A DNA stretch of 64,000 nucleotides from contig VLTN01000042.1 in assembly GCA_008330645.1 (NCBI GenBank), forward strand, positions 124,001 through 188,000, given 5' to 3'. Each line of letters opens with the position of its first letter. The stretch's first letter is position 1. Origin of the DNA: Cafeteria roenbergensis. Its lineage: Eukaryota > Sar > Bigyra > Bicosoecida > Cafeteriaceae. Under the pieces are notes generated by a model. It was given only the letters and a program-made list of their open reading frames with translations. It searched no databases and was not told the origin of the DNA. Positions 22,773 to 64,000 of the stretch are shown here, piece by piece. The translations under genes and the position numbers were made by a program.

Positions 22773-25700
22773 ATGGGGTCCGTCGAGGGCGCCTCGGTTG
22801 CAACTACCCGCGGCATGCAACTTGCCGGGCAGCGCAGCAGGTTGCACAGACCTGGCTGTGCGTCGGCCTCGATCAAGGTTGCGCTGGTATCGGTGATGCT
22901 CGCGGGAGCGTCCTGGGCTCTGATCCCGGGGAGCCTCTCTGGGCGCCTTCCTGCAAGCTCCGGCGCTTTCGTGGACTCGGCAGGCGCGCTTGCTTCCGGA
23001 ACCGACGAGGGCCCCAACGGAGGCATGCCATGGAAGCCATTTGTGTATCCAAATACGGAGGAGATGCGCCAGTTCGCTCAGCGCTGGGCCAAAGCGGCCC
23101 CGCACCTCGCGCGCGCAGACACCTGCCAGCGGCGCTACGGCCTCCCCGCCTTTGGCAAGTGCGGCATGCGCGATGGGGTCAAAGTCAAGTGCGAGCAGCC
23201 GTTTCTCGTGATAACGCACTGGGGCAGCTGGGCCGGGTACGGGCGCGCCCCGTCCGCCAGCGCGACGACTTTGGCCAGTTCGAGCAACGCTTCGGCTGCG
23301 GAGGCTTTCAGGCAAGGCCTGCCCGGTCGCGGCGCCCCTCTGGCATCCGCGGCCTCCCTTGAGCGCCCCCACGTCCTCATCAGCGGCAGCGTTCACGGCG
23401 ACGAGCAGGTGGGACCCGTTGCCTCGCTGGCGCTGGCGGAGCTGCTGCTGGCCAACTACCTGGAGGCCGAGAAGTGGCTTGCGCAGTGCGGGGCGGCGGG
23501 AGGGCCAGCCTGCCAGCGGCAGCGGCGCCGGCTGCAGCGCTCGCTTCGCATGTCCACAATGGCCTCCGGCAGCGGGCAGGCAACGGGGACGGCGTTTGCG
23601 CAGCAGGTCGAGGCGGATGCAGCCCGCACCGCCAGCGCCGGCTTGCCGTTCAACCCCTGGCTGAAACTGCTGGTGGAGACGCGCGTGCTGGTGCTGCTTC
23701 CAACAGCCAACCCTGACGGATACCACAACATGCGTCGCGGCGAGGTGCTGACTACATCCAGTGGCAGGCAGCAGGAGGTCGATCCGAACCGTGACTTTGC
23801 GTACGACCCCGAGGACGGTGCCGCTGGCTGCATGCGCACGATCACCGCGCGCTGCGTGAACGAGCTGTTCCGTGAGCACCTCTTCCAGGGCATGGTGACC
23901 TTTCACGGGGGCGACCAGAGCGTCACGTACGAGTGGGGCACCAACCGTCACACTGACAGTCACTCTGCATCGCCGGATGACGTGGCACAGGCGGCCTCTG
24001 CAGTTGCGATGAGTGCCTTTGGAGGGGCGTTTCCCGAAGGCCAGCCTTACCCGACCGGCCGAATGAACAGCGTCATGTACCCGGTGCAGGGAGGTCTTGA
24101 GGACTGGAGCTACGCCGCCTCCTGGGACACCACGTACAACGTCCAGTGCCAGCCAGACACCTACGGCGGCTACGACGCGTCGCGAACCGCCTACGGGACG
24201 GCAGAGCTCCGTTGCTCCACGATGCTTGTCGAAACAAACAATGCCAAGCGGCCCGACGCAAAGCAGCTGGGCTACTGGGGCCCCGCGCTGCTCGCCCCCG
24301 CCAAGAGCGGCGCCCGCATCAGCATCACGGGGCCGGCCACGCAGACGGACGTGCTGCCTCAGGGGGTCGACGCGGGCGATGTTCCGCGAAACGTTCGGCT
24401 GGCGCTCAGCCACCTGGACTTGGCTCGGCCGTACGCCGTGGCGCTGTCAGTTGCGACAGCTGATCAGCCTGCGGGCCCCGGTGAGACGCCGGCGGGCAGC
24501 GCAATGGACCGGCCAGTGGCGCTGTTTGGTCCCGCTGAGTCCGCCAGCACCCAGGGCCCAGAGTCGCTGCGGTCGGAGTACCACGAGTGGAGGACCATCA
24601 CCGGCGAGTCAGACGCGGACTCCATTGCTGTGGACATCGAGTGGGACGTTGGCGGGGCGGCCGTGGCCGACAGCACGGGATTGATGGCCTTCCGCTGGCC
24701 AATCGGCGTGCCCCCCTCGCTGCTGCTGCTGGCCACGGGCACGGCCTTCCCGCCCGGCTCTGCCGCCGGCAAAGCAGCGAACCGTTCCTTCTCGCAGCCA
24801 GAGGCGGCGGAGTCGATTGACAGTGCTTCGCTCGCTGGCGGAACCCTGCCCAGCTGGGCCGGAGTCATGCGCGGCTTCGCAGAGGCTGGCAGCGCTGCTT
24901 TGCCTGCTGGGCTGGGTGCCACGGTCGCGGCGGCGGACGCTGCAGCTGCCATCGCTGCTGCTGCGGTTTCTGATTCCATGTCCGCAGCTGGGGCGACGGA
25001 CCTGCCTCCGAACGCCTGGTCGATCCTGCTGCCTGCAGAGCTCTCCGTCGCCGCAGCAGTCCAAGCAGCGCGGGGTTCCAGCAACGGCTCTGCCCCGCGG
25101 CCTGCAGTCACGAACGACAGCCAGGCCGGCCGCCGGCGCGCCGTTGGACCTGTAGCCGCGCCGCTTGCTGTGGCGAAGAGCAGGCCTGCCAGATGGTCGC
25201 GATCGACCAAGGACGCATCGGCGGCGCCGTTCGTGGCGGCCTTCTCCGCGCGAGTGTCGCTGCCTCCGCTCTCTGCTGGGCACCTCGCCGATGTAGGCTG
25301 CATCGTGCCCGCTGAGCGTGGCGGCGGGCAGGCCAGGCTGTCCCTCTGTCCGGACGGCTCTGCTGCCGCTGCCGCGTACGTTATCATCCCCTGGGTGAAG
25401 GCTGACGCAGCCTGGAGCCCGCCAGGGACCGAGCCGCAAACGCATCTGTCGCGGGTGCGTACGGACCCGCACTGGCTGAAATCAAACAACGGCTTCGTCG
25501 CCCGCGGCCAGCGATACTTTACAGGGTCTGCCGTGTTCGTCGGGGTGGTCGATCGCCGTCCGGCCCGGCTGCAGTCCGCGTGGCAGGCCGTATCTGAGCT
25601 GAGCAACGCGGCCTCGCTGCCCGCGCCGACGCCCCTGCCATCAGCAGCGCCCTCTTCGTCGGCATCGCCTCCACCCTCGCCGTCAGCGACAGCGTCAGCA

Positions 25701-26474
25701 GCGCCGCCGGCGCCCTCCGCGTCTGCCTCGCCTGCAGCACCCACAGCGTCGCCCTCGCCCTCGGGCTGCGCCAGCGGCGCGGCAGGCACCGGCGGGGACG
25801 CACCCCTCGTGCCCGGCACCCCGCCCCGCTGTTCCGGAGACGACGCCAGCGGAGCCAGCTCGCCGGGCCAGAGCGCAGACGACCGCGCTGCGGTGTTTGG
25901 CGTGCCAGTGAGCGCGGAGACGGCCGCGGCCCTGGCCCAAGCGGCGCTGTCAATGCTCGTTGCGATCGGGTGCTGGAGATGCTGCGTGTCGGGGCGGGTC
26001 TGCTGCGGCAGGAGGTGTCCCGGCGGGTCGGCTCGCCAGACGCCGGTTGGAGCTCCGAGCGCAGCGGGTGCGGGCGGCGACTCTGCCACGCAGGAGCCGC
26101 TGTGGTGCGCGGCCCGCCGGCGCGACGGGAGCGTGATGGGGCCGCTCGACTGGGCTGTGTCGCTGTGCTTTGGGGAGGGCGGGCTCGTTCAGCGGATCCG
26201 CGGCGCGCCGGTGTACGAGCCCGCCAGCGCTCTGCCAGACGACGATCTTGACGGATCAGACCACGACGTCGGCGGGGCCGCCGCTGGGTCGTTGGGAAGC
26301 CCCTCCTCGGATGCGTCGTCGTTCCAAGGTGTCGAGCTGGTCGGCGGTGTTGCGGTGCCGGGGCCAGGGGTGCAACCTGTGCCTGGGTCGGGCAGCGAGC
26401 GCGCACCTCACGAAGCGGCCACCTTCAGCAGCGTGCCCGCGTTTCGCGACAGCTCGGATTCCGATGGCGTTTGA
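22773..26474 (+). CDS. Membrane-anchored M14-family zinc carboxypeptidase
   Basis: The first in-frame ATG is at 22773 and gives 1233 residues. A hydrophobic segment at about 37-52 is a signal peptide or anchor. The peptidase domain shows the M14 residues: zinc ligands in SVHGDEQVG (HxxE, about 23395), NPDGY, the substrate-binding Asn-Arg in DPNRDF, the third zinc His in VTFHGG (about 23900), and the catalytic Glu in MLVETNNAK (about 24225). After it come Ala/Ser-rich regions, then a Pro/Ser stem at about 25618-25760. A hydrophobic segment at about 25920-25970 is followed by a Cys-rich stretch, consistent with a C-terminal membrane anchor and cytosolic tail. It probably trims C-terminal residues of extracellular or lumenal peptides; whether basic or other residues is not evident. 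Its last 190 bp are duplicated at 33.7 kb. Confidence 0.85.
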   Translation: MGSVEGASVATTRGMQLAGQRSRLHRPGCASASIKVALVSVMLAGASWALIPGSLSGRLPASSGAFVDSAGALASGTDEGPNGGMPWKPFVYPNTEEMRQFAQRWAKAAPHLARADTCQRRYGLPAFGKCGMRDGVKVKCEQPFLVITHWGSWAGYGRAPSASATTLASSSNASAAEAFRQGLPGRGAPLASAASLERPHVLISGSVHGDEQVGPVASLALAELLLANYLEAEKWLAQCGAAGGPACQRQRRRLQRSLRMSTMASGSGQATGTAFAQQVEADAARTASAGLPFNPWLKLLVETRVLVLLPTANPDGYHNMRRGEVLTTSSGRQQEVDPNRDFAYDPEDGAAGCMRTITARCVNELFREHLFQGMVTFHGGDQSVTYEWGTNRHTDSHSASPDDVAQAASAVAMSAFGGAFPEGQPYPTGRMNSVMYPVQGGLEDWSYAASWDTTYNVQCQPDTYGGYDASRTAYGTAELRCSTMLVETNNAKRPDAKQLGYWGPALLAPAKSGARISITGPATQTDVLPQGVDAGDVPRNVRLALSHLDLARPYAVALSVATADQPAGPGETPAGSAMDRPVALFGPAESASTQGPESLRSEYHEWRTITGESDADSIAVDIEWDVGGAAVADSTGLMAFRWPIGVPPSLLLLATGTAFPPGSAAGKAANRSFSQPEAAESIDSASLAGGTLPSWAGVMRGFAEAGSAALPAGLGATVAAADAAAAIAAAAVSDSMSAAGATDLPPNAWSILLPAELSVAAAVQAARGSSNGSAPRPAVTNDSQAGRRRAVGPVAAPLAVAKSRPARWSRSTKDASAAPFVAAFSARVSLPPLSAGHLADVGCIVPAERGGGQARLSLCPDGSAAAAAYVIIPWVKADAAWSPPGTEPQTHLSRVRTDPHWLKSNNGFVARGQRYFTGSAVFVGVVDRRPARLQSAWQAVSELSNAASLPAPTPLPSAAPSSSASPPPSPSATASAAPPAPSASASPAAPTASPSPSGCASGAAGTGGDAPLVPGTPPRCSGDDASGASSPGQSADDRAAVFGVPVSAETAAALAQAALSMLVAIGCWRCCVSGRVCCGRRCPGGSARQTPVGAPSAAGAGGDSATQEPLWCAARRRDGSVMGPLDWAVSLCFGEGGLVQRIRGAPVYEPASALPDDDLDGSDHDVGGAAAGSLGSPSSDASSFQGVELVGGVAVPGPGVQPVPGSGSERAPHEAATFSSVPAFRDSSDSDGV

Positions 26475-26623
26475 GCTGCGCGCGGCAGCAGAGCCCGAAC
26501 GGGCGTGTGATGCCGGCGACGGCGTGGCCATGAGTGCGCTGCGCACGTGTCCAAGTTGCAGACTCGCGTCGCTCGCGTCGCTCGGCCATCGAGGGCCTGC
26601 TGCACGCTGCCACCTCACGCGCG

Positions 26624-27938
26624 TCACTGATCTGGCGGGCACGGCTCTTGGAGCACCTTCTCGAGCTCGAGAAGGTGCTGCTTCTTCATGTAGTGCATCG
26701 TGATGATGGGGCCCTGCGGCTCTGCCGGGACCTCGTGGAACGGGTGACGGCAGCGCACTGCATGCGCTGTGAGTGCTCCCCATGCCCCGTCCGAGGTGAC
26801 CCCGTACCCTTGCGCGCTGAGCCCGACAATGCTGTACAGCCGGACGCCTGCCCGCAGCTGACACTCCGTCAAGTATACGTCCTCTGCGTAGTTGTCCGTG
26901 CCAAGGGTATCACCGAGGAAACGGACGCAGTCGGCCATGCCGCTCAGCGTTTGCGGCGACCCCATCCACGCCGCGACAGACGCGCCCGACAGGAACGAGC
27001 TGGCGCCCCCTCCCACGAAGAGGTGCCCGGGATAAAATGGGCTGCCACCAAGCCGGCCGTGGTGCGCGAGCTCCCTGAACCCGCGCTCGTCGTTGATGAG
27101 GTGCATCTTCATTGCGGCCGGCAGCATGCGCTCGATATCCACCCAGTTGTCGTCCCACAGCCGCATGTACCAAGAGTAGCCGTGCCAGTGAGTCCACACG
27201 TGGGACCACACGTCAATCATGCGGTTCGTCATCTGTGCGTACACAGGGTCTACGCAGTGGTCCAGGACGATGAGCCTGCCCCGCAAGCGCTCATCGGGCT
27301 GGGTGGAGTACCAGACGAACCCCGGCATGGCGCGGGCCCAGATGCGCTCCGACTCGACTGTCAGGTCGTGGTTCTTGTCATACGTGACCCCGAAGCTGAA
27401 CATGGTGGCGCCGAACTTCGTGCGGGCCTCAGCGGCAGCCGGAGCCCGGCCGCTGGCGCCAGGCCGCAGCTCCGGGTCAAGGTCGGCCACGCCCCACCCC
27501 GGTCGCTCCACGAAGGGCCTGTTGTTGCACGCCTTCTCCCGAGGACCGGCGGGCCATTGGGCGGCCACCGCGGGGATGGGCGGCACGGAGGGCTCGGGGT
27601 TTGCGGGTGGGGCCGCTTGAGCAGGCGAGGCACAGGGAGTGAACGACACACAAGGTGCCACAGCTGCTTCCGTCACAGCCGGCTTGTCGGGAGCGCCTTG
27701 GCTTGTGCGAAGGCCCAGTCCCAGATTTGGAGCCCTGCGATTCCAGGTCACACGGCGCTCTCCGGACTCCAGCTGAGCATTTGAGGCAGCGGCGATCTCT
27801 GAAACGAACTTAACCGATGTGCAGGCCTCCTGCTCACGTTTTGGTGCTCAGGGAAATGATGCCCATCAAGCTTGCAACCACGAGTGCTGTCCCGCCAACC
27901 GCTATTGTCTGCCTCCCGCATCGCCATTGCGACTGCAT
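26624..27938 (-). CDS. Fringe/core-1-like beta-glycosyltransferase (GT31-like), copy A
   Basis: Two exons, 27938-27838 and 27734-26624, are joined across a 103-nt intron (donor GTGAGC, acceptor CGCAG, phase 2) and encode 403 residues. Exon 1 encodes a short tail plus the signal anchor (IAVGGTALVVASLMGIISL); exon 2 encodes a Pro/Ala-rich stem and the catalytic domain. GT31 features: GYSWYMRLWDDNWVDIE, where DDN takes the place of the usual DDD metal motif, FVGGGASSFLS matching the family Gly-Gly-x-x-x-x-x-Ser motif, and NYAEDVYLTECQLRAGV matching the family EDV segment. It is probably a Golgi beta-1,3-type hexosyltransferase; donor sugar unknown. The long minus-strand frame also continues past the acceptor from a GTG, but the spliced form supplies an ATG and a membrane anchor, so I prefer it. 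Copy B has the same structure. Confidence 0.83.
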
Positions 27939-28251
27939 TCTTGAGCAAGGAAGAGTGTCATTGCAACTGTGTGCAATCGGGTCGACGAGGGTCAAGTTTC
28001 GATCGACCAACGATTTGACCATGGCTCGGTTCGGCTGCAAACGACTGCTTGCAGGGCAGTATCGGCTTAAGCCCTCAGCGTCCTTGGTGGGGGCTTGGCT
28101 TCGTGCCATCACACCACACATTCCCATCGAATCCTTGTCAGAGCTATGCGCCCACGTGCCCATCGCCTCCTCGACGCGACTTGGCAACTCTACCAGCGAT
28201 GCGATGTTGCCAGCCGTCCACGGCCACACTGGACTCCGGGCAGCAGTCGTT
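27939..28251. other. Intergenic between two minus-strand GT genes, 313 bp
   Basis: It lies upstream of the GT31 copy A start and downstream of the StrF-like GT stop. Much of it is conserved in the second block (about 35356-35854), where it carries extra sequence. Confidence 0.5.
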
Positions 28252-29811
28252 TCACGGCAGAATGCTCTTGTCAAGCTTGCACGCCGTAGTATCCACGGGC
28301 CGCAGGTCGATCGTGTGCATCCACTTCTCCGTGACAAACTTGCCCGCACGCGCGAGCGCCACTTGATCGATGGATTGCTGCCAGATGTTGAAGTCGGGGT
28401 CATACCGAACGAGTGCGCCACCTGAATGCCAAGTCTTGTGTGACGCCACGAAGGTGTCAGTCGCATGCACAAACTTGTCTGCGGCAAGACAAGAGAATGA
28501 AAAGTCAGCGCCGTAACAGTGGAACTCGCTCATCTTGGAGTCGAACTGTCCGGAGCTCCCACGGAGTGTCACCATCATGGCCTCGTCGGCAATGAGGCGC
28601 GCTTCTCGAGCCGATTCTTGCATTCGCCGCCACAGCGGAGTCATGCCGAAATCCAACCACTCTCCTCGGGTGGCGAACTGGTCGTCTTCTCCACGCACTC
28701 GCGCACTCCCCATCGCGATTCCACACCACGAGTGGGCGTCGACATCTGACCCGTTCAGGCGGTGCACTTGCTCGTAGATAGACAGCTCGAAGTTGGGAAG
28801 GAGGTGAACGTCGTCGTGAAGAAATACAACGATGTCGCTTGGCCGTGTCGCCACGCTCCAATATCCTGACGCGTTCCCGGCCAGACTAGATTTGCGAGCG
28901 GCATTGTATGCCGCGGGAATTCCAGTCAATTGGCTGCGCTTGGCGTCCACGACCGTCCACCTATGTCCGCCAGGCAACACAGGGTCGATGTAGGCCGCCG
29001 AACGGAGCAGGTTCGAGCTGGCTTTTACGACGTCGTTGCTCACGCTCACAAAGTGCAGCGGACCCCACAAGCTTGCCAGTTCTATCACTCGACTAGCATC
29101 CTTCGGCCGCTCAATGGCCAGCATCTTGGCATCGGGGGTGTCGGGATCAAGCTCGATGGAAAGCGAATAGCCGGACCAACGCTTAGGGTCCGGAGCGGTG
29201 CTGACCAAGGTTGCGCCAAAAGGCGCCTCCAGCCTCGTGGGCAAGTGCAGAGGACCACCCAGTTCTCTCACACGGCGTGGGCTGGGGAGGTCCATGAGGA
29301 ACACCGGCCTGCCGTCCTCGCCGAATACCCAACACGTCCGTCCTCTGCCGGCGGCGTCAACTTCTCTGCAAGGCAACGATGTGGCGAATCTTGATTGCTT
29401 GCTGCCGTGGGGCTCGCCATGACCCGTTGCGTTGCGGGTCGGTTTGCAATCCGCGGCAGTCATGCCGGCTTGAAAATCGGAGCTCGACGATTGGCGCGCG
29501 TTGCGCACTGCCGCAAATGTAAGGTTTGGCCCTGCGCGTGCACAACTCAAAGCATGCAGCGTCTCAGCTTGGCCTCCGTCGCCGCCATGCCCAGCCATGT
29601 GATGCCATGCCCAGCAGGCGGCACGTGCCACTCAGGGGTAGGACTTCTTCGAGGCGCCGCGGCTGCGCTCCGCGAGCCGCTTAGGGACGTCTCACTCACC
29701 AACAACGACGGTCAAGCCCAGAAGCCCAGCACCAAGTACTGCGATAGTGGCTGCAAGGAAGCCTGAGCGCCGACAGCGGCACGACTGCAAGTCAGTTCCT
29801 GCCATTTCCAT
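28252..29811 (-). CDS. StrF/GT2-like glycosyltransferase with signal-anchor exon
   Basis: Two exons, 29811-29700 and 29531-28252, are separated by a 168-nt intron (donor GTGAGT, acceptor CGCAG, phase 1) and encode 463 residues. Exon 1 is too short to stand out as an ORF, but it encodes a start, a Cys/Arg tail and a hydrophobic anchor (FLAATIAVLGAGLLGLTVVV). The catalytic half shows IPAAYNAA, then VVFLHDDVHLLPNFE at about residue 275, a strand plus DxD-like motif seen in the StrF-type GT2 branch. WCGIAMGSARVR and YGADFSFSC follow, with a final helix-rich tail. It is likely a Golgi or ER lumenal sugar transferase; donor and acceptor unknown. Two in-frame ATGs six bases apart could start exon 1. 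Only its last 40 or so codons survive in the second block. Confidence 0.75.
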
Positions 29812-30333
29812 TGTCTGCGGTGCTCATCGGTACGAGCAAAGGATGGGGCGAACGGAGCAGCTCGTCCAAATTGCTTGGCGAGAAATATTGCGCGACAAGC
29901 AAGAGGTGTCGTCTCAAAGCATGACTATTGACCTGAACTGACACAAAGCAGGTTCGCTTTGCCCCACCCCGGTAGACCAGACGGGGAAACGCTTTTTTCA
30001 TACTCCTACCGGCAACATTGGCACACGCTTTGCCCACCCCGCGCCACAGCGTTCAACGCCGCTTGTCTCAAGGGGCTGGGTGCGAGTGCTTTCCGTTTGG
30101 GCGCGGCTTGAGAGGCTCGTCATTCGTCTGTTCTCGTGCTCGGGCACGGTGCACAGCGGAAGTTTTGAAGTGCTGCGCGAAGAATTGCCTGGCGGCAACC
30201 GAGTCCCTGGCAGTGTACTACGCATAAATCTGGTGCTGCGCTCGTCGGTGCTGGTGCAAGTGAAGGGTTGCCAGCAGTTGCAGAAAGAGTTGACGGACTG
30301 AAACAGATCATGTTTGTGATGTAAATCTTGTGC
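29812..30333. other. Intergenic, 522 bp
   Basis: It lies upstream of the StrF-like GT and should hold its promoter. It is visibly lower in GC than the coding flanks. No gene is seen. It ends at a terminal-inverted-repeat element. Confidence 0.4.
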
Positions 30334-30837
30334 TGCTGTCCCCTCGAGTTGAGAGGCCGCCTTCAGATGCGGCAACAACACCGGGCCCGCTCTGCCCCAC
30401 GGCAGGCGCGGGCCATCCCGACCCGCTCGCAAGCCCGCCCTCTGGGCGAGCACTCCGACCCGAGCCCGCGTGGGGGCTCGCCGGCCGTATCCCGTTCCCG
30501 CCGCGCGCATGCGTTCCGACTAGCGCGCGAGCGGTCCCGACCACATGACCCCGGCTCTGCCTCACGGCAAGCGCGGGCCATCCGACCCGCTCGCAAGCCC
30601 GCCCTTTGGGCGGGCACACCGGTTCGAGCCCGCGTGGGCTCACCGGCCGCACCCGCACCCGTACCCGCCGTACGCGCGCGCCCCGAGTGGTGTGCGTGTG
30701 CTCGATTCGATCGTTTGACCCTCCCTCCCGTCCCTCGGGCGACCCCGTGCGGTCCCCGCCGCGCCAAACTTAAGCCATTTGAGTCAACACCAGTCCTCCA
30801 CCAACAAGCGGCCTCTCAACGCCCACTCAGGTCAGCA
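30334..30837. mobile_element. Short non-autonomous TIR element, copy R1 (about 504 bp)
   Basis: The ends form an inverted repeat: GTTGAGAGGCCGC at 30348-30360 and its exact complement at 30808-30820. The outer ends begin TGCTGTC and finish GGTCAGCA. The interior is very GC-rich and carries two diverged direct units (about 30381-30485 and 30549-30650). One contains GGTTCGAGCCC, which resembles a polymerase III B box. No coding capacity is seen. Copy R2 at 32.5 kb shares both ends and one unit. The best fit is a MITE-like DNA element; a tRNA-derived SINE is a weaker alternative. Confidence 0.6.
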
Positions 30838-31160
30838 CCATAAGACGCTTTCTGGCGTTTTTGTGCAGTGCCTTTGTGACGGCAGCAATTCCCAATTCGC
30901 AACGTCGGCTCCAGGTCATTGACAACAGCGACATGGCGAGCGTGACCTTGCGTGCGCTTTGCATCGTCGGGCGCGCAAGAAGTGTGGGCTCGCAAGCCTC
31001 GCGTCGTTTTCGCCGAGCCTTTTGAATTGTTGAGACATGACCGCCGGCTGCACTGCTGGAAAGTCCGATCGGGCCCGACGAAATTGGTAGAGCCGGACTG
31101 CTGGGATCGCATCTATCGGCATCAAACACTGGCCCTTCACCTCTCTTCATCGCAGACGCA
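30838..31160. other. Intergenic / 5' leader of small GT, 323 bp
   Basis: No gene is seen. The stretch just before the ATG (CTTCATCGCAG at 31145-31155) looks like a possible splice acceptor in the leader. Confidence 0.35.
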
Positions 31161-32144
31161 ATGTCGGAGGCAGATCATCAAAGGCCCTGCCCAAGCCGCC
31201 CCGTCTTCGCCCTCGTGGCAGTCGCTGCCGCTTTCGTCTTCGCCTTCAGCCAGCTGGGACGTCACCTTGCAGGCGAGACGGTTCGACGACACGCAAGCTT
31301 GACCGCAAGTAAGGCGCCGCACGCCGGGAGAGAGGTGCCTGAAGGTCCTCCTACCCCGCACCTAGACGAGCCCAACGTGCACCTATCGCTGGCAGAGGAG
31401 AGCCATTCCAGCCCCAAGCAGGGCGTGCGATTGATCCACTTCAAGAACGCAATCGACCCGACGCTGCCCAATGTCAGCGCCATTGTGCGGACGTATGAGG
31501 GCGATGGGCCAAAGTTCTTGCCCCTGCTCATGTCCTTGCTGGCGGCGGCTGAGGGCCACGTCAACCTGAATGTCATTGCTGTCAATGTCGAGCGGGCGGG
31601 GCGGGAACGGCTCCGAGACGCGGTGGCGCACGTCAACGAGCTGTGCGAGCGGCCTTCGGTACACCTCGAGCTCGACTGGGTCTACGAAGGAAACCATGTG
31701 CCCGAAAAGAACGCCATGTACGGCTACGATGCGACGGATGCAATGCTCAGCCGCATCCTGAAGGAGACCCGCAACCAGCGCGACGCTGGCGGCTGGCTGT
31801 TGGTGACAAACGGCGACAACCTGTACGCTTCTGCGTTCTTTGAGGCGGTGAAGCAGCACATGAATGGCCCAGCTGCCGTGATCGCCACTAGATTCCTCAC
31901 GAGGTATCCGATGCCCACTGAGTTCGGCAAAGTTGCAAATGTACCACTTACTCCGGCTCCTCACATGAACGGGATCGACTTGGGATGCTACGTTTCTCGC
32001 ATGTCGCGAATCCGGGAGCTGGGAGTAAACTTTGTGAACAACACTGCAAATATCCGCGGGGCTGACGGATTGTTTGCAGAAAAGCTCAAGCCCGACGGCG
32101 AGAAGTTCGTCATGATCCCAAGGGTGTTATTCTACCACCAGTGA
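31161..32144 (+). CDS. Small type II glycosyltransferase-like protein, intact copy
   Basis: The ATG at 31161 gives 327 residues. A short tail is followed by a signal anchor at about 14-32, then a short stem. The lumenal domain begins with NVSAIVRTYEGDG and LPLLMSLLAAAE, a GT-A nucleotide-binding start, and contains WLLVTNGDNLYASAFFEAV at about 210, where NGDN lies at the place of a DxD motif. A C-terminal segment LGCYVSRMSRIRELGVNF follows, and FVMIPRVLFYH ends the protein. It is probably a Golgi sugar transferase; family not named with confidence. A broken copy lies at 36052-37395. Confidence 0.72.
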   Translation: MSEADHQRPCPSRPVFALVAVAAAFVFAFSQLGRHLAGETVRRHASLTASKAPHAGREVPEGPPTPHLDEPNVHLSLAEESHSSPKQGVRLIHFKNAIDPTLPNVSAIVRTYEGDGPKFLPLLMSLLAAAEGHVNLNVIAVNVERAGRERLRDAVAHVNELCERPSVHLELDWVYEGNHVPEKNAMYGYDATDAMLSRILKETRNQRDAGGWLLVTNGDNLYASAFFEAVKQHMNGPAAVIATRFLTRYPMPTEFGKVANVPLTPAPHMNGIDLGCYVSRMSRIRELGVNFVNNTANIRGADGLFAEKLKPDGEKFVMIPRVLFYHQ

Positions 32145-32452
32145 TGGGTAAGCTTTGATTCGTGGTATGGACAGAAGACTCTGCGTCGTACAGCGTGCGC
32201 ATCTGTCTAAACAGTCAATGCATACCTGACATTTCTTGCCGACCTTTCGAAGTAGGGCCACTTCCCTGCCAGCCGCGCTTCTGTCAGCCCCAAGTTCACA
32301 TCCAGGGTGGATGCCGAAGAACGTGGACCGCTGTGGAGCAAAATGTGACTGCGATCCCGCTGCGCAACAAGTTCGGCTTTGGCTCAGACCAGAGGATCCA
32401 AAACACTACTGAACTTGCGGCATTCATGATCATGCGTTCGATATTCATTTGA
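32145..32452. other. Intergenic, 308 bp
   Basis: 3' flank of the small GT. No gene is seen; comparatively AT-rich. It ends at element R2. Confidence 0.4.
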
Positions 32453-32796
32453 TGTTGCCGTCCCCTCAAGTTGAGCGGCCGCCGCCCTGAAGATAGGGCA
32501 ACAACCCCGGGCCCGCTCTGCCTCACGGCAAGCTCAGGCCATCCGACCCGCTTGCAAGCTGGCCTTCTGGGCGGGCACATCGGTTCGAGCCCGCGAAGGG
32601 CTCACCGGACGTACCCCGTACCCGCCGCACGCACGCGCCCCCGAGTGGCGTGTGAGTGCTCGATTCGATCGTTTGATCCCTCCCTCCCGTCCCTCGGGCG
32701 ACGCCATGTGGTCCCCGCCGCGCCGAGCATAGGCCATTTAGGTCAACATCAGTCCTCTACCCGCACGTGGCCTCTCAACGCCCACACAGGTCAGCG
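32453..32796. mobile_element. Short TIR element, copy R2 (about 344 bp)
   Basis: Same family as R1. The left end GTTGAGCGGCCGC at 32470 and the right end GTGGCCTCTCAAC at 32767-32779 are imperfect inverted repeats; outer flanks CCGTCCCCTCAAG and ACAGGTCAGC match R1. It has a single interior unit with GGTTCGAGCCC and the core CCTCCCGTCCCTCGGGCGA also seen in R1. Non-coding. Confidence 0.58.
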
Positions 32797-32848
32797 GCAG
32801 CCATCAGGCAGAGCGATCAAATGCTCTGTCAAAAAGCACTCATGTGCC

Positions 32849-33206
32849 TGCTGTCTTATTTCTGGTTGGCAGAGTGGAGGCGAGAATCGCCGATGCTGAC
32901 CTAGTGGCTAAAGATTCGGCTCGGCGGGGACCGCCAGGGTCGCCCGAGGGACGGGAGGGTGGGTCAAACGAGTTCACGCACACACCACACGGGGCGCGCG
33001 CGCGAGACGGTACGGGGGGTCGCCCGGGAAGCCCACGTGGGCTAGACCACCGGGTGCGCTCGCTTCTCGGAGGGCGCAAAACGATTGACGATCGGCGAGG
33101 TGCAGCTCTGCCGTAGAAAGCAGAGCCACATGCGCTCGCAAGGTTTAGCGGTAGCGTTTCGATGCCAACCAAGTTGTACAGCAGCCCTAGATTTCGATCA
33201 TTTCCA
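32849..33206. mobile_element. 358-bp element, copy R3 (inverted relative to R4)
   Basis: This segment is the reverse complement of 36793-37150; I find no mismatch by eye. It includes the CCCGTCCCTCGGGCGA core of R1 and R2 in reverse orientation. An internal TGGTTGGCA at 32863-32871 pairs with TGCCAACCA at 33163-33171. The shared unit begins TG and ends CA; its left end TGCTGTC matches the end of R1. No coding capacity. Confidence 0.65.
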
Positions 33207-33617
33207 GATTCTGTTGTTGAAGTGCGTTCTGGGCGTCGCGTTAGCGCCCCAACTGTTGTCCGCAGTTGATCGTGCAGAGATGGATGGGCTTGACCACATG
33301 GTCGGTAGCTTGACCTCGACGCGTGCATATTGGCATGCACTCAAACATCGTGGGCAGCGCTCTGCCAACGGCCGCCGGCCCGCAAGCTGCTGACCGGGCA
33401 ACCTCGCTCGAGTGCGCACCCAGCATCGGCCTCAGCGCACTCCGCCTGCCGTTGAGTGACCGTTTCCCCCACCCTCCCAGCCCTTGGGCAGAGCTGAGGC
33501 GGCTCTGCCCGCCGTGCTGTGGGGCTCTAAACGAGCCCCGTCTGCCACACGCCGTTATCCCCCTGATGTAGGCGGATAGAAATCACATGTGAACTCCAGA
33601 TCAGAAGCTCAGCCGGC
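33207..33617. other. Spacer between R3 and duplication block 2, 411 bp
   Basis: No gene, repeat or similarity to block 1 is seen. The stretch 33440-33560 is C-rich and non-coding in appearance. Confidence 0.35.
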
Positions 33618-33890
33618 GCTCTCAGGCTGCGCCAGCGGCGCGGCAGGCACCGGCGGGGACGCACCCCTCGCGCCTGGCACCCCGCCCCGCTGTTCCGAAG
33701 AGGGTCGTTGGGAAGCCCCTCCTCGGATGCGTCGTCGTTCCAAGGTGTCGAGCTGGTCGGCGGTGTTGCGGTGCCGGGGCCAGGGGTGCAACCTGTGCCT
33801 GGGTCGGGCAGCGAGCGCGCACCTCACGAAGCGGCCACCTTCAGCAGCGAGCCCGCGTTTCGCGACAGCTCGGATTCCGATGGCGTTTGA
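33618..33890 (+). pseudogene. Carboxypeptidase 3'-end fragment (duplicated relic)
   Basis: About 80 bp matching 25760-25838 are joined to a copy of 26288-26474, keeping the same terminal TGA (33888-33890). It lacks the peptidase domain, the transmembrane segment and any start. It came along with the duplication and should be non-functional, though it may supply the GT31 copy B 3' region. Confidence 0.8.
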
Positions 33891-34039
33891 GCTGCGCGCG
33901 GCAGCAGAGCCCGAGCGGGCGTGTGATGCCGGCGACGGCGTGGCCATGAGTGCGCTGCGCACGTGTCCAAGTTGCAGACTCGCGTCGCTCGCGTCGCTCG
34001 GCCATCGAGGGCCTGCTGCACGCTGCCACCCCACGCGCG

Positions 34040-35355
34040 TCACTGATCTGGCGGGCACGGCTCTTGGAGCACCTTCTCGAGCTCGAGAAGGTGCTGCTTC
34101 TTCATGTAGTGCATCGTGATGATGGGGCCCCGCGGCTCTGCCGGGACCTCGTGGAACGGGTGACGGCAGCGCACTGCATGCGCTGTGAGTGCTCCCCATG
34201 CCCCGTCCGAGGTGACCCCGTACCCTTGCGCGCTGAGCCCGACAATGCTGTACAGCCGGACGCCTGCCCGCAGCTGACACTCCGTCAAGTATACGTCCTC
34301 TGCGTAGTTGTCCGTGCCAAGGACATCACCGAGGAAACGGACGCAGTCGGCCATGCCGCTCAGCGTTTGCGGCGACCCAATCCACGCCGCGACAGACGCG
34401 CCCGACAGGAACGAGCTGGCGCCCCCTCCCACGAAGAGGTGCCCGGGATAAAATGGGCTGCCACCAAGCCGGCCGTGGTGCGCGAGCTCCCTGAACCCGC
34501 GCTCGTCGTTGATGAGGTGCATCTTCATTGCGGCCGGCAGCATGCGCTCGATATCCACCCAGTTGTCGTCCCACAGCCGCATGTACCAAGAGTAGCCGTG
34601 CCAGTGAGTCCACACGTGGGACCACACGTCAATCATGCGGTTCGTCATCTGTGCGTACACAGGGTCTACGCAGTGGTCCAGGACGATGAGCCTGCCCCGC
34701 AAGCGCTCGTCGGGCTGGGTGGAGAACCAGACGAACCCCGGCATGGCGCGGGCCCAGATGCGCTCCGACTCGACTGCCAGGTCGTGGTTCTTGTCGTACG
34801 TGACCCCGAAGCTGAACATGGTGGCGCCGAACTTCGTGCGGGCCTCAGCGGCAGCCGGAGCCCGGCCGCTGGCGCCAGGCCGCAGCTCCGGGTCAAGGTC
34901 GGCCACGCCCCACCCCGGTCGCTCCACGAAGGGCCTGTTGTTGCACGCCTTCTCCCGAGGACCGGCGGGCCATTGGGCGGCCACCGCGGGGATGGGCGGC
35001 ACGGAGGGCTCGGGGTTTGCGGGTGGGGCCGCTTGAGCAGGCGAGGCACAGGGCATGCACGACACACAAGGTGCCACAGCTGCTTCCGTCACAGCCGGCT
35101 TGCCGGGAGCGCTTTGGCTTGTGCGAAGGCCCAGTCCCAGATTTGGAGCCCTGCGATTCCAGGTCACACGGCGCTCTCCGGACTCCGGCTGGGCATTTGG
35201 GGCGTTGGCGATCTCGGAACCCGAACTTGACCGTGGTGCAGCCCTCCTGCTCACGTTTTGGCGCTCTGGGAAATGATGCCCATCAAGCTTGCAACCACGA
35301 GTGCTGTCCCGCCAACCGCTATCACCTGCCTCCCGCATCGCCATTGCGACTGCAT
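34040..35355 (-). CDS. Fringe/core-1-like glycosyltransferase (GT31-like), copy B
   Basis: Exons 35355-35255 and 35150-34040 are joined across a 104-nt intron (donor GTGAGC, same acceptor context and phase as copy A) and give 403 residues, exactly as in copy A. The signal anchor, DDN motif, GGGASSFLS and EDVYLTECQ motifs are all kept. Differences from copy A are few and mostly mild (for example Thr to Val before the anchor, FVWYS to FVWFS, AWMGS to AWIGS, GDTLG to GDVLG). No stop, frameshift or splice-site loss is seen, so both copies look functional or the duplication is very young. The frame also continues antisense-open upstream for 190 codons, which I regard as chance. Confidence 0.83.
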
Positions 35356-35854
35356 TCTTGAGCAAGGAAAAGTGCCATGGCAACTGTGTGCAATCGGGTC
35401 GACGAGGGTCAAGTTTCGATCGACCAACGATTTGACCACATGCCTCGGCTCGGCGGATCACCCGTCCACCGTTGCATCCAGGCCAGGAGCATGCAGCCGC
35501 GCAACCCCACACAGCCCCCTCGCCAACGCAGCGCCCGCAGTGCCTCTGAAGTGCTCCCCTCGTGCGAACTAGGCCATTTAATGATGCTGTGGGGGAAACC
35601 GATGATGGTTGCAAGGCCCTGTCACCGATGCAAGCGACTGGTTGCACAACGGGGTAGGGCAGTGTCAGCTCGGGCCCTCGGCATCCTTCGTGGGGGCTTG
35701 GCTTCGTGGCATCACACCACACATTCCCATCGAACCCTTGTCAGAGCTATGCGCCCACGTGCCCATCACCTCCTCGAGACAACTTGACAACTCTGCCAGC
35801 GATACGATATGGCTAGCCGCTCACGGCCACATTCGACTCCGGGCAGTAGTCATT
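35356..35854. other. Duplicated intergenic region with extra sequence
   Basis: It corresponds to 27939-28251 of block 1. About 35450-35610 has no counterpart there, while both ends match block 1. No gene is seen. Confidence 0.5.
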
Positions 35855-35978
35855 TCACGGCAGAATGCTCTTGTCAAGCTTGCACGCCGTAGTATCCAGC
35901 GGCCGCAGGTCGATCGTGTGCATCCACTTCTCCGTGACAAACTTGCCAGCACGCGCGAGCGCCACCTGGTCGATTGCA
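35855..35978 (-). pseudogene. C-terminal scrap of the StrF-like GT
   Basis: Same strand and stop position as the end of the gene at 28252. The last 40 or so codons (VALARAGKFVTEKWMHTIDL and on to SILP) are kept almost unchanged, then similarity stops abruptly. The start, anchor and catalytic motifs are missing. This marks the left edge of the 2.8-kb deletion in block 2. Confidence 0.85.
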
Positions 35979-36051
35979 GAGCCTGGCAGTCCGTGGCGCC
36001 TCGAAGCAGCAGTCTCCCTTGCTTGAATTTCACCTCTTGGCTGCATGCTCC

Positions 36052-37395
36052 ATGTCGACATCAGATCAAATAAGGCCGTTTCCCACCCGGCCCGTCCTAG
36101 CGCTTGTTGCAGTGGCTGTCGCTGCAGTCATTGCTTTCAGCTTCTTCGCGGAGCAGTTGGACGATGGGGCAAATGCAAGGCCTGCTGTCCGTAGTGAGAT
36201 CCTGGTTCCCCACAGAAGGAACACGACGCTTGCAAACGAATCCCTGTGCCCAAGCACGCAAGAGCAAGCGGAGGCCTCGCCAGCTGTGTGCGAGTGCCCG
36301 TTGACTCCCCAGCAGCGCGTGCGATTGAATCACTTCAAGAACGCAATCGACCCGACGCTGCCCAATGTCAGCGCCATTGTGCGGACGTATGAGGGCGATG
36401 GCCCGAAAATTGTGCCCCTACTTTTCTCCCTGCTGGCGGCGGCTGAGGCCACGTCAACTTGAACGTGATCACTGTCAATGTCGAACGAGCTGGGCGGGAA
36501 CGGCTCCAAGACGCGGTGGCGCACGTCAACGAGCTGTGCGAGCGGCCTTCGGTACACCTCGAGCTCGACTGGGTCTACGAAGGAAACCATGTCCCCGAAA
36601 AGAACGCCATGTACGGCTACGATGCGACGGATGCAATGCTCAGCCGCATCCTGAAGGAGACCCGCAACCAGCGCGACGCTGGCGGCTGGCTGTTGGTGAC
36701 AAACGGCGACAACCTGTACGCTTCTGCGTTCTTTGAGGCGGTGAAGCAGCACATGAATGGCCCAGCTGCCGTGATCGCCACTAGATTCCTCATGGAAATG
36801 ATCGAAATCTAGGGCTGCTGTACAACTTGGTTGGCATCGAAACGCTACCGCTAAACCTTGCGAGCGCATGTGGCTCTGCTTTCTACGGCAGAGCTGCACC
36901 TCGCCGATCGTCAATCGTTTTGCGCCCTCCGAGAAGCGAGCGCACCCGGTGGTCTAGCCCACGTGGGCTTCCCGGGCGACCCCCCGTACCGTCTCGCGCG
37001 CGCGCCCCGTGTGGTGTGTGCGTGAACTCGTTTGACCCACCCTCCCGTCCCTCGGGCGACCCTGGCGGTCCCCGCCGAGCCGAATCTTTAGCCACTAGGT
37101 CAGCATCGGCGATTCTCGCCTCCACTCTGCCAACCAGAAATAAGACAGCACGAGGTATGCGATTCACACCGAGTTTGGGGTGTATCCGAACGTGCCAGTC
37201 ACTCCAGCCCCTCGGGTGGGATCGATCGACTTGGGATGCTACGTTTCTCGCATGTCGCGAATCCGAGAGCTTGGAGTCTCCTTCACGTTCAACTCCTCGT
37301 CGATCTTGAGGGCTGACGGATTGTTTGCAGAAAAGCTCAAGCCCGACGGCGAGAAGTTCGTCATGATCCCAAGGGTGTTGTTCTACCACCAATGA
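36052..37395 (+). pseudogene. Small glycosyltransferase copy, broken
   Basis: The copy of the gene at 31161 starts with an ATG and a diverged but still hydrophobic anchor. After 130 codons a single-base loss near 36447 (GAGGCC against GAGGGCC in the intact copy) shifts the frame. The remaining sequence continues in the new frame to 36792, where a 358-bp element interrupts it, and resumes at 37151 up to the conserved end (FVMIPRVLFYH and TGA). The N-terminal 80 residues differ much more from the intact copy than the middle does, which is nearly identical. It is a pseudogene as it stands, unless the frameshift is a sequencing error; the insertion would still break it. Confidence 0.85.
36793..37150. 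mobile_element. 358-bp element, copy R4, inserted in the small GT copy
   Basis: Comparison with the intact gene shows the insertion exactly: CCTCA then the element then CGAGG, against CCTCACGAGG uninterrupted. No target-site duplication is left when the shared terminal CA is counted in the element. The unit is the reverse complement of 32849-33206. Its core matches R1 and R2. It begins TG and ends CA, but lacks the flanking duplication expected of an LTR. Class unresolved. Confidence 0.7.
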
Positions 37396-37396
37396 G

Positions 37397-37808: not shown

Positions 37809-40802
37809 ATGCCTGGTGCGGCGCCAGCGTCGCAGGCCCAGGGCGACGTTCAAACTGCGCGATTTTCGTATTCCGAGCCTGCGGGCGCAGCTTCAGGACC
37901 GCCAGCAAGTGCTCCCGCCGAGGGTCAACGCGCCGAAATGGGGGCGGTTGGTGGCCAGGGTGGCAGCGGCATGGCTCGCCCAGAGGGGCCAAGAAGCAGG
38001 CCGGAAAGCGCTTCGGATGTGCCCGACTTTGCGGGCAGTTCCCTGGCTCCTGCGGCACGTGGCATCACGGCTGTGCTGACTGGCTCGTCCACGGAGCCGA
38101 CGGGCCAGTCGCAGGCTGCAGATGCCCCGCCTTATAGCCCTGGGAGCGACCGCGGCCCGGCTGCTGCGTCGACCAACAGTTTGCCCCCCGCCGACCACGT
38201 CACGACAGCGCTTCCGCCTCGCCCAGGAGGCCCAGCTGCCCTTCCGCAAGCCGCAGACACGAGGTCTGCGTCCGTTTCCGCGTCGTTCCAGTCCTCGTCG
38301 TCGTCCTCGGTTTTCGGCGGATCGGCCTCACCTCCCCGCACTTCCATCTTCCACCGTTCGTCCGCCACTCGGTGCGACCCTGGGGCGGCTGATGCGAGCA
38401 TCGTCCCCCATCCCAGTTGTCCTGGCACCGGGCGAACCGGCAATTCCATCTCAGCGCGCGCAGGCGCGGCTTGCGGGCAAGGGCCCGCTGCCATCAGCGC
38501 CTCGGCAGCCACGATTCCAGATGACGTCGACTTGACACAGCCCGACGACCTGACGACGCTTGATGAAGACGCCACCATGCCGGCATCAGCTGTACTCGAC
38601 CACGTGGTGGAACAGGAAGCCCCACACCGGCTTGGTGCACTTCCTGGCGACGAGCACGAGCCCACTGACCCCAACCGTCGGCGGGTGCAAGCGGGGGTGG
38701 GTCCGCGAGCCTTCAGGCAAGGTCAGGTGGCGCTGGGAGCCGGCCGGCTTCGCTCCGGGCAGAGCCGTCATGTCAGGCTCGTCATTCCGGACGACGCCCC
38801 GCGCGGTGCCTCGGCATCGCTTTCCGTTTCGACGTCTGTCTCGCCAACTGGAGGCGCCGGCGTGGGCTCTGTTTCGACTCCCTGCTTCGCAACCCAGCTT
38901 GACGCTTCTGCCAGCTCTGCTGCCAGATCGGTGGACGGCGATGAGATGCTTTCAGCAAGCTATTCTGCAGGCGGAGCTGCGCGTTCCAAGCAAGTCGTTA
39001 AGAGCAAGCGTGAGTGTTCTGCAGGAGGTCCGAGCAGCCGTCCAACGGCCAACGTGCCCGTTGCTGAAACTGCACGGCCTCGTGGCGCACATCGTCTCTC
39101 GGACGACGACGTCATCGACGAAGCTGACGAGCTGCAGCCCGGCAGAGCCATTGATGCGGCTAGGAGGGCTGGCAAGAGCACGGGGGTGTCGGCGGCTGAC
39201 ACTCCCAGCGACGTGGACAGCGACTGCGAGGGCAGTGCACGCGAGCATCGCGTCGCTCCATGCCTCACCGGCCGGACCAGGACTGGTGGTTCGGCCGAAG
39301 CTGCCGCCGGGCGTAGTCCAGCTCTCGCGTCTGGGGTGCCCAAACACGCTCCCAGCGCTACTGCATTGACCGCCAGACGGGTGCAAGCAGAGTCGCTGGA
39401 CGATCTGGAGGAGATCAACGAGGAAGAGCCACCTGGAGTGCTGTCAGCCCGCGCGCTCCGTCGGTCGTCATCACTGGAGGGGGAAGGGCAAGCGGAGGGA
39501 GTCGGGGGCATTGCGCGTGCTGAAGACAAATGCAAGCGTGCTGGACGTGCTGCTGGCCTGTCTGCGGTTCTTGTTGCATCAGCTGGCGATGGCTCCCTGG
39601 GCGATAGCTCCAGGTCATCCGCGCCTGGACCCGTCGCCGACTCAGCACATCTGCAGGGGCAATCACGCTCGTCGGCCCCAGAACTATCTCCTACTCTGAC
39701 CCCGATTGAAGAAGAGGAGGCTTCGTCTGGCAGGGCAGCACCACAAAACAGCCAGCGGGCGGAGCATGCTATCAACGGCGTGCTGGCTGCTGCGCCTGGG
39801 ACGGAAACAGCTCCGTCGTCGTCATCGGTGGGCTTGGATGTCGCCGCAGCGGGCTCGGCTGATTCTAGCGCCGGACAGTCCCCCTTGGCGCAAAGCGCAG
39901 ACTGTCCCTCTCGCGACACGTGCGCAAACACCGGATCTGCCGAAGCCAGCATGAGTCCTTCGACAACGAGGCGCGGGCTAGCAGACGACATTGGCGCGGT
40001 GGCCCCGACTGCTGTGTCGGCGACAGCTGCCACTGAGCGGCAAGCTGACGACTGCGGTCCAATACCTGGCGCTGATGCCAGTTTGCAGCATGCCGAGATG
40101 GAGCTGACGCTGACAGCTGCCAGCGAGGCGCCGACCCACTACGGTGCCACCCCGGCGTCGACCTCGCCAACTCGAGGTGGCTTTGCATCGGCGCAAGGGG
40201 CGCCGCCAAGCCCCGAGACTTCCACCCAGCAACCCCCCGGTATTGAGTCTGCAGGTGATGTGCCGGCGACTGACGCAGGCGCAACAACTGCGGGTCGACC
40301 AGCCGAGAAAAAGCCCTCTGGCGAGGCCGACAGAGACCCAGCAACCAACGGGCAGCGACCACCAGCGACTGCTGCTTCAGCCATCGCTCCGACGGCCAGT
40401 TCACGCTCCAGCGGTGGCTGGATCGACACCCGAGCTCCCGCTGCACCAACGAACGGGCACACCGGCGCCGCTCTGCGAAGCAGACGAGCGCAGAGAGCCT
40501 TCGGCGGGCGCAGCTCGTCGGAGTCTGGGTCTAGTGCGAAAATGAGGGATGCTTCAACCGCGAAGGCCGAGCCGACGGGACCTGCCGACCAGACTTGCAT
40601 GCAACATCCCGTAGAGGGCAGCAGCGAAGGGGCATCGCCAGCCGGAGGCTTGGCAGCAGCTGACGAGAGGCAAACGCGCGGAGAGGCTGGCAGTGTTTGC
40701 AGCGGCGCTGCTTCAGGCATCTCGGCAGCTCGGTCCACTGCCAGTGTTAACGGCCATGCCGCTGCAGCTGCTCCGCCCCCTGGGGCGTCGTCGTCCTCCT
40801 CA

Positions 40803-40835
<33 letters not shown>

Positions 40836-62500: not shown

Positions 62501-64000
62501 GAGCAGCAGGTTGCCCGACGAGTCGGTGCCGGCGCCCGTGCCGACCACGACGGCCCCGCTCGACTCGCCCGCCAGCAGCCCCGACGACACCGACACGGGT
62601 GCCGACGGCGCCCGTGTCGGCGCTCCCCGACGTGAGCAGCACCCACCCGCTGTTCGCCGCGCCCGTCGCCCCCGCCGACGTGACCACGGCGGAGCCCGAC
62701 GCCGAGGTGCCCACGCCGCTCACCACGCTCACGGCGCCGCCGGCGGTGGCGGCCTTGGTCGTCTCGCCGCCCGCCAGCAGCGCCGCCCCGCCCGCCCCGC
62801 CCGACGACTTGCCGCCCGTCACGCTCACCGACCCGCCGGCGCCCGAGTCGGTGCTTCCGGCCATGACCACCACGAACCCGGCCGCGCCGCCCGTCCCCAC
62901 CCCGGACGCCACCGACACGGCGCCCGACGTCCCGCCCGTCACCGACCCGGACGTGAGCGTGGCCGCCCCCGACGACACGCTCCCGCCGGCGCCCGTGGTG
63001 AGCAGCAGGTTGCCCGACGAGTCGGTGCCGGCGCCCGTGCCGACCACGACGGCCCCGCTCGACTCGCCCGCCAGCAGCCCCGACGACACCGACACGGTGC
63101 CGACGGCGCCCGTGTCGGCGCTCCCCGACGTGAGCAGCACCCACCCGCTGTTCGCCGCGCCCGTCGCCCCCGCCGACGTGACCACGGCGGAGCCCGACGC
63201 CGAGGTGCCCACGCCGCTCACCACGCTCACGGCGCCGCCGGCGGTGGCGGCCTTGGTCGTCTCGCCGCCCGCCAGCAGCGCCGCCCCGCCCGCCCCGCCC
63301 GACGACTTGCCGCCCGTCACGCTCACCGACCCGCCGGCGCCCGAGTCGGTGCTTCCCGCCATGACCACCACGAACCCGGCCGCGCCGCCCGTCCCCACCC
63401 CGGACGCCACCGACACGGCGCCCGACGTCCCGCCCGTCACCGACCCGGACGTGAGCGTGGCCGCCCCCGACGACACGCTCCCGCCGGCGCCCGTGGTGAG
63501 CAGCAGGTTGCCCGACGAGTCGGTGCCGGCGCCCGTGCCGACCACGACGGCCCCGCTCGACTCGCCCGCCAGCAGCCCCGACGACACCGACACGGTGCCG
63601 ACGGCGCCCGTGTCGGCGCTCCCCGACGTGAGCAGCACCCACCCGCTGTTCGCCGCGCCCCGTCGCCCCCGCCGACGTGACCACGGCGGAGCCCGACGCC
63701 GAGGTGCCCACGCCGCTCACCACGCTCACGGCGCCGCCGGCGGTGGCGGCCTTGGTCGTCTCGCCGCCCGCCAGCAGCGCCGCCCCGCCCGCCCCGCCCG
63801 ACGACTTGCCGCCCGTCACGCTCACCGACCCGCCGGCGCCCGAGTCGGTGCTTCCCGCCATGACCACCACGAACCCGGCCGCGCCGCCCGTCCCCACCCC
63901 GGACGCCACCGACACGGCGCCCGACGTCCCGCCCGTCACCGACCCGGACGTGAGCGTGGCCGCCCCCGACGACACGCTCCCGCCGGCGCCCGTGGTGAGC
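59582..64000 (-). CDS. Gly/Ser/Val-rich tandem-repeat beta-solenoid protein (3' part, N-terminus beyond window)
   Basis: The minus strand encodes a repeat protein that enters the window at 64000 and ends at 59582. The body consists of strand-turn repeats of 14-17 residues of the form Ser-Val-x-Val-x-Ser-Gly followed by Gly/Ser/Ala turns, as in beta-solenoid surface or secreted proteins of protists and algae. Eleven of these make one 166-residue unit, repeated about eight times. A unique C-terminal domain of roughly 130 residues (59582-59970) starts at LGSPFRSLYVGRV and ends GFIVFRV. It holds a WDPATGDIVMV segment; it may be a cap or anchor. The frame is broken between units by isolated one-base differences at about 60910, 61572, 61905, 62597 and 63658, all in C or G runs. 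They may be consensus errors rather than real lesions. Role unknown; adhesion or extracellular coat is plausible. Confidence 0.7.
60216..64000 (-). repeat. Near-perfect 498-bp tandem repeat array (about 7.6 units in window)
   Basis: The marker GAGGTGCCCAC occurs at 60216, 60714, 61211, 61708, 62205, 62704, 63202 and 63701, so successive periods are 498, 497, 497, 497, 499, 498 and 499 bp. Units are almost identical to each other at DNA level (for example the only variants seen in one stretch are GCACCC against GCGCCC and CCCGCC against CCGGCC). The array continues past the window edge. It is coding on the minus strand; the plus strand is also open but reads as Pro/Thr/Ala/Asp-rich shadow. Confidence 0.95.

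What the first reader, a model, noticed from the sequence alone, without database searches (positions are those of the whole stretch)
25760..37396. Tandem duplication of a glycosyltransferase cassette caught mid-decay
Block 2 repeats block 1 in order and strand but has lost two internal stretches. One gene is kept whole (GT31), one is reduced to its last 40 codons (StrF-like GT), and one is a pseudogene (small GT). The carboxypeptidase tail was copied as a passenger, which fixes the left breakpoint inside a host gene. It is a clear snapshot of how a protist glycan gene family expands and sheds members.
Basis: seen in the sequence. Interest (0 to 1): 0.72.

Follow-up and report, generated by a model that had tools for sequence, protein, structure and literature searches.

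The report
Patchwork duplicate of sugar-transferase genes
A marine protist carries two side-by-side sets of sugar-transferase genes whose patchy resemblance fits copying of different ages, later sequence exchange between copies, and a jumping-gene remnant stuck in a broken copy; each process is already known, so it is an informative but ordinary example.

Summary
The repeat is real: 25.76-32.15 kb and 33.62-37.40 kb share collinear, same-strand segments. GT31 is whole in both blocks once a ~103-nt intron is modelled. The StrF-like gene survives in block 2 only as its last 41 codons, and the small-GT copy there is a pseudogene. One duplication simply decaying does not fit. Identity runs from 44% to 99% within the small GT. 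Divergence is ~1% in GT31 exon 2 and its non-coding 3' flank, but 11-13% in the intron and the StrF 3' flank. Small-GT parts outside the near-identical tracts look older still, though they are also the least conserved parts of the protein. I infer gene conversion over copies of different age. The spacer between the blocks is rich in dispersed repeats. The genome matches Cafeteria burkhardae strain BVI, where solo AB repeats are published. Verdict: real, known processes, moderate interest.

The parts
22773..26474 (+). M14 carboxypeptidase-domain ORF (1233 aa); its tail is the left end of the duplicated segment
   Evidence: PF00246 E 9.8e-19; match starts at 25756
26624..27938 (-). GT31-type glycosyltransferase, block 1: exon 1 27938-27838, intron 27837-27735 (103 nt), exon 2 to 26624; 403 aa, intact as modelled (no RNA evidence)
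   Evidence: GT31 by profile
28252..29598 (-). StrF-like putative glycosyltransferase, block 1 (448 aa), intact ORF
   Evidence: paralogs on C30 (three), C42, C63, C74; label by motif only
30331..30837 (+). Two partial copies of the 343-bp dispersed repeat
31161..32144 (+). Small putative GT-A-like transferase, block 1 (327 aa), intact ORF
   Evidence: one distant paralog at C10:417635 (50% over residues 70-327)
32453..32795 (+). Complete 343-bp dispersed repeat
   Evidence: 50 places listed, 40 of 179 candidates scored
32849..33206 (-). Solo AB repeat of a Ngaro retrotransposon, 358 bp, identical to and inverted relative to 36793-37150
33284..33590 (+). Third dispersed repeat (~300 bp) ending about 25 bp left of block 2
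   Evidence: 6 other places at 82-85% over 281-304 nt, plus shorter matches
33617..33890 (+). Orphan carboxypeptidase tail, block 2, lacking the counterpart of 25841-26285
34040..35355 (-). GT31-type glycosyltransferase, block 2: exon 1 35355-35255, intron 35254-35151 (104 nt), exon 2 to 34040; 403 aa, intact as modelled (no RNA evidence)
35858..35980 (-). Remnant of the StrF-like gene: last 41 codons
   Evidence: residues 408-448, 93%
36052..37395 (+). Small-GT pseudogene, block 2: frameshift at about 36.45 kb and 358-bp insertion
36793..37150 (+). Solo AB repeat of a Ngaro retrotransposon inside the small-GT pseudogene, no target-site duplication

Best explanation
Block 2 is a paralogous patchwork. 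(1) The small-GT pair is an old tandem duplication. (2) Later, a segment running from the carboxypeptidase tail through GT31 to the 3' end of the StrF-like gene was copied into the space before the second small GT, next to dispersed repeats. (3) Gene conversion then re-homogenised patches: about 1.4 kb around GT31 exon 2 and its 3' flank, and tracts in the small GT, the clearest 31596-31907. Shorter tracts may have been exchanged with a third GT31 copy on contig C32. (4) The second small GT was lost through a frameshift and a Ngaro element whose solo AB repeat remains. Shown: the identity patchwork, open GT31 models in both blocks, the pseudogene, and the Ngaro-type repeat structure of the insert's family. 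Inferred: conversion as the cause of the patches, the order of events, and the two-event origin.
For: b1-b2 differences: GT31 exon 2 11 of 1033, its 3' flank 3 of 338, intron 11 of 103, StrF 3' flank 26 of 199; the two non-coding flanks differ sharply (Fisher 2e-9), so selection on GT31 is not the cause. Small GT identity along the gene: 49.4, 93.6, 82.9, 99.0, 62.3, 89.7, 44.1, 97.6%. Fourfold sites in 31596-31907 are 50/52 identical b1-b2 but 11/34 b1-C10; the adjoining segment 31490-31595, equally conserved against C10 (0.59 and 0.60), has 12/18 (P 0.003). Fourfold divergence in two well-aligned segments between the near-identical tracts (9 of 28) exceeds that of the GT31 intron (P 0.014) and the StrF 3' flank (P 0.021), hence an older small-GT pair. 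No blastn match beyond the small-GT coding region. Insert: A1-internal-B1-A2B2 element at C85 with RT (PF00078, 6e-10) and a below-cut-off YR match (PF00589, 1e-4); 18 of 19 copies lack a flanking direct repeat of 3 bp or more.
Against: The three low-identity segments of the small GT are also the least conserved against the C10 paralog (0.35, 0.29, 0.36 against 0.59-0.68; rank correlation 0.73, P 0.039), so part of the patchwork reflects fast-evolving regions, not age or conversion. Segment limits were chosen after seeing the alignment, so the Fisher values are descriptive. Fourfold counts are small. Donor and recipient cannot be told apart. Collinear order fits one block duplication too. Among 87 variable GT31 sites the b1-b2 run itself is not exceptional (P 0.157). 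No reads and no second strain were available.
Confidence: 0.55

Rival explanations
1. One old tandem duplication of the whole block (carboxypeptidase tail to small GT), then deletion of the StrF body and of 445 bp of the tail, with gene conversion of several ages keeping GT31 and its flanks similar.
For: Collinear order and strand of four elements; conversion is indicated anyway.
Against: It needs intermediate-age conversion across about 2.3 kb including non-coding flanks, since these differ by at most 13% while fourfold sites in small-GT segments between the near-identical tracts differ by about a third (9 of 28); no trace of the missing StrF body in block 2.
Confidence: 0.32
2. One reading: one tandem duplication decaying by deletion and mutation, without conversion; the low-identity parts of the small GT are simply fast-evolving.
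For: GT31 exon 2 and its 3' flank are 99% identical; the low small-GT segments are also the least conserved against C10.
Against: Two non-coding flanks of the same duplicate differ by 0.9% and 13% (Fisher 2e-9); fourfold sites differ between equally conserved small-GT segments (50/52 against 12/18, P 0.003); identical runs exceed shuffles.
Confidence: 0.06
3. Assembly artefact: two haplotypes joined end to end.
For: The paper describes high heterozygosity and removal of redundant contigs with Redundans.
Against: Parts differ by 11-56%, block 2 lacks the StrF body, and the flanks differ, which is not what alleles would show (inference); the longest identical stretches, 329 and 358 bp, should be far shorter than PacBio reads (read length from general knowledge).
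Confidence: 0.06

Closest known systems
Solo AB repeats of Ngaro retrotransposons in Cafeteria burkhardae (PMC8547959, passages seen)
   Same: Same organism as inferred; split direct repeats A1-[ORFs]-B1A2B2; solo AB repeats scattered in the genome
   Different: The passages seen mention solo repeats across the genome and in virophage elements; they do not describe one inside a duplicated glycosyltransferase pseudogene. The supplement was not seen.
Concerted evolution by ectopic gene conversion among tandem paralogs (general knowledge, nothing read)
   Same: Patchy near-identity in paralogs that are otherwise diverged
   Different: Only two or three copies, so direction is unresolved; possible exchange with a copy on another contig
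GT31 beta-3-glycosyltransferases (chondroitin sulfate synthase, C1GalT1; GT31 membership of these recalled)
   Same: Profile of six paralogs matches CHSY3 (2.1e-6) and C1GalT1 (0.0057); N-terminal hydrophobic segment in the modelled protein; WDDN at the expected acidic site (motif recalled)
   Different: No Pfam hit for the window copies themselves and no relevant PDB hit with a single sequence

Membership tests
Ngaro (DIRS-order) retrotransposon | Split direct repeats A1-[ORFs]-B1A2B2 | tested here: met
   C85 element L051 on its minus strand: A1 6513-6271, B1 1218-1122, A2B2 1121-764, all 100%
Ngaro (DIRS-order) retrotransposon | Reverse transcriptase and tyrosine recombinase | tested here: inconclusive
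   RT PF00078 6.1e-10, above cut-off; Phage_integrase PF00589 1.2e-4, 22.3 bits, below its cut-off of 27.1
Ngaro (DIRS-order) retrotransposon | No target-site duplication (recalled as typical of tyrosine-recombinase elements) | tested here: met
   18 of 19 copies show no flanking direct repeat of 3 bp or more; the exception, L008, lies next to its own B1; the 20th locus, L026, was dropped as incomplete
GT31 glycosyltransferase | Sequence relation to known GT31 enzymes | tested here: met
   Profile of 6 paralogs: CHSY3 2.1e-6, C1GalT1 0.0057; Fringe PF02434 0.057 on one paralog, below cut-off; single-sequence search gave nothing relevant
GT31 glycosyltransferase | GT-A fold | tested here: inconclusive
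   AlphaFold2 mean pLDDT 35.6, unusable
StrF-like GT (Glyco_tranf_2_5, PF13712) | Match to the family profile | tested here: inconclusive
   No Pfam hit listed at E up to 10 and no genome hit at E 1, but the latter search rang in none of 14 control genomes; no PDB hit with one sequence worth naming or a profile; the label rests on motif resemblance recalled
Small GT (GT-A) | Match to a GT profile or fold | tested here: inconclusive
   Only NTP_transferase 0.0026, below cut-off; AlphaFold2 pLDDT 38.5; PDB searches gave only matches at E 0.7 or worse

The most novel reading that the evidence does not exclude
Ngaro-related repeats shape this gene family. Dispersed repeats sit at the edge of block 2 and beside the other close GT copies (343-bp repeat in 3 of 3 close-paralog stretches, against 1 of 8 distant ones; one-sided Fisher 0.024, stretches of unequal length), so they may mediate the spread of GT genes. 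A fresh AB insertion may also act as a barrier that ends gene conversion: the 99%-identical small-GT tract stops about 8 bp past the insertion site.
Probability: 0.15. Interest if true: 0.5.

Novelty: new member of a known kind. Interest (0 to 1): 0.3.

Why it matters
It shows that apparent snapshots of duplication and decay in protist genomes can be patchworks of copying, conversion and transposon insertion, so identity alone does not date them. It also gives a testable locus for strain comparison in Cafeteria burkhardae, for which the paper reports four assemblies.

Tried and rejected
Introner reading of the 358-bp insertion: rejected. Its ends are TGG...GCA, not GT...AG, and it matches the repeats of a Ngaro element. 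Composite-transposon reading of the two inverted 358-bp copies: rejected, because the right copy interrupts homologous small-GT sequence on both sides. Frameshift in the block-1 GT31: rejected; it falls in an intron modelled alike in all three close copies, each giving 403 aa. Structure prediction failed for both proteins tried, so no fold search was run. The PF13712 search told nothing because its controls were silent. A control with random genome regions could not be fetched, so the link between the repeats and the GT copies stays suggestive; the only controls are the rest of the window (no hit outside 30331-33206 and 36793-37150) and 12 paralog loci, of which L045 overlaps L055 and was not counted. 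Paper searches: Cafeteria + Ngaro + genome assembly (3 papers); Ngaro + solo + tyrosine recombinase + retrotransposon (8, listing only apart from PMC8547959); Cafeteria + glycosyltransferase + gene conversion (0); Cafeteria + HAP2 + gamete (1 general review, listing only).
Full report
Organism. The window is contig C42:124001-188000 of a 36,303,456-bp genome in 167 contigs. Cafeteria strain BVI is reported with 36,327,047 bp in 170 contigs (PMC6972860, passages). The structure of its retrotransposons also agrees. I take it to be Cafeteria burkhardae BVI; this is an inference. Window GC is 59-71% up to 60 kb and 78-79% in the last 4 kb, against 70% reported for the genome.

Observation. Block 2 also carries about 186 nt that block 1 lacks.

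GT31. Read as plain ORFs, block 1 looks frameshifted relative to block 2. The three close genome copies (two here, one at C32:409639) share a GTGAGCAG donor and a CGCAG acceptor, and splicing gives exactly 403 aa in each, with introns of 103, 104 and 100 nt. There is no RNA evidence. Exon 1 encodes a hydrophobic segment, fitting a type II membrane enzyme (inference). A profile of six paralogs matches chondroitin sulfate synthase 3 (2.1e-6) and C1GalT1 (0.0057), which supports GT31; single-sequence searches found nothing relevant.

Patchwork. Between the blocks, GT31 exon 2 differs at 11 of 1033 sites and its 3' flank at 3 of 338, but the intron at 11 of 103, the StrF 3' flank at 26 of 199, the stretch 27823-28021, which includes exon 1, at 9 of 199, and the StrF remnant at 5 of 120. 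The contrast between the two non-coding flanks (Fisher 2e-9) is not explained by selection on GT31. In the small GT, identity runs 49, 94, 83, 99, 62, 90, 44, 98% along the gene (limits chosen after seeing the alignment). The longest identical run, 207 columns, is reached in 0 of 10,000 shuffles. Fourfold sites in the 99% tract are 50/52 identical, but 11/34 against the C10 paralog; the next segment, equally conserved against C10, has 12/18 (P 0.003). I infer gene conversion. Among 87 variable GT31 sites, b2-C32 and b1-C32 share runs reached in 5 and 75 of 10,000 shuffles, which hints at exchange with another contig; the b1-b2 run itself is not exceptional (P 0.157).

Result against this. The three low segments of the small GT are also the least conserved against C10 (rank correlation over 8 segments 0.73, P 0.039). 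Part of the patchwork is therefore intrinsic to the protein, and the 38-56% figures overstate the age. The age argument rests on fourfold sites in well-aligned segments between the near-identical tracts: 9 of 28 differ, more than in the GT31 intron (P 0.014) or the StrF 3' flank (P 0.021). These numbers are small.

Origin. blastn finds no match of the small-GT pair beyond its coding region, and the ~60 bp aligned on each side are not similar. Two events of different age are my preferred reading; a single old event with several rounds of conversion is not excluded.

Insertion. 36793-37150 interrupts the small-GT pseudogene; the same 358 bp lies inverted at 32849-33206. The genome search listed 55 places (40 of 178 candidates scored); 8 full copies, these two included, are identical. 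At C85 the sequence forms A1-internal-B1-A2B2, with RT and a below-cut-off tyrosine-recombinase match. Of 19 copies examined (one of 20 dropped), 2 have an adjacent B1 and 17 do not (solo); 18 lack a flanking repeat of 3 bp or more. The published account describes this structure and solo AB repeats in this species (PMC8547959, passages).

Repeats. The spacer between the blocks holds a 343-bp repeat, the AB repeat and a ~300-bp repeat ending about 25 bp before block 2. The 343-bp repeat also lies beside the close GT paralogs (3 of 3 stretches: L050, L053, L054) and beside 1 of 8 distant ones (L037).

Other limits. Donor and recipient are unresolved. The end of the near-identical tract about 8 bp from the insertion may be chance. 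Labels for the StrF-like gene and the small GT lack profile support. Both structure models failed.

Verdict. A real duplicated locus shaped by known processes.

Noticed in passing
window 3206-5233 (+): Complete-looking HAP2-GCS1 gamete fusion protein (PF10699, E 5.7e-98), single match in the genome search, in an organism described as having no known sexual cycle (PMC6972860). It suggests cryptic sex; one paper search returned only a general review.
   Followed up: partly
window 60216-64000: Tandem array of a 497-bp unit, 7.6 copies at 99%, running off the window end, with GC 78-79% and strong negative GC skew.
   Followed up: no
window 37809-49628 and 53309-59302 (+): Uninterrupted ORFs of 3939 and 1997 aa without any Pfam match at 0.001.
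   Followed up: no
window 12355-14409 (+): A further glycosyltransferase, family GT61 (PF04577, 8.6e-13), about 11 kb from the duplicated cassette.
   Followed up: no
C30:338285-339622, C30:402075-403415, C30:404266-405606: Three StrF-like paralogs at 78-80% protein identity, two of them in tandem; the 343-bp repeat lies beside the first and beside one end of the tandem pair.
   Followed up: partly
C107:4255-4902, C39:319651-320300: The AB repeat lies directly against the ~300-bp repeat in the same relative orientation as in the window, where 77 bp separate them.
   Followed up: no
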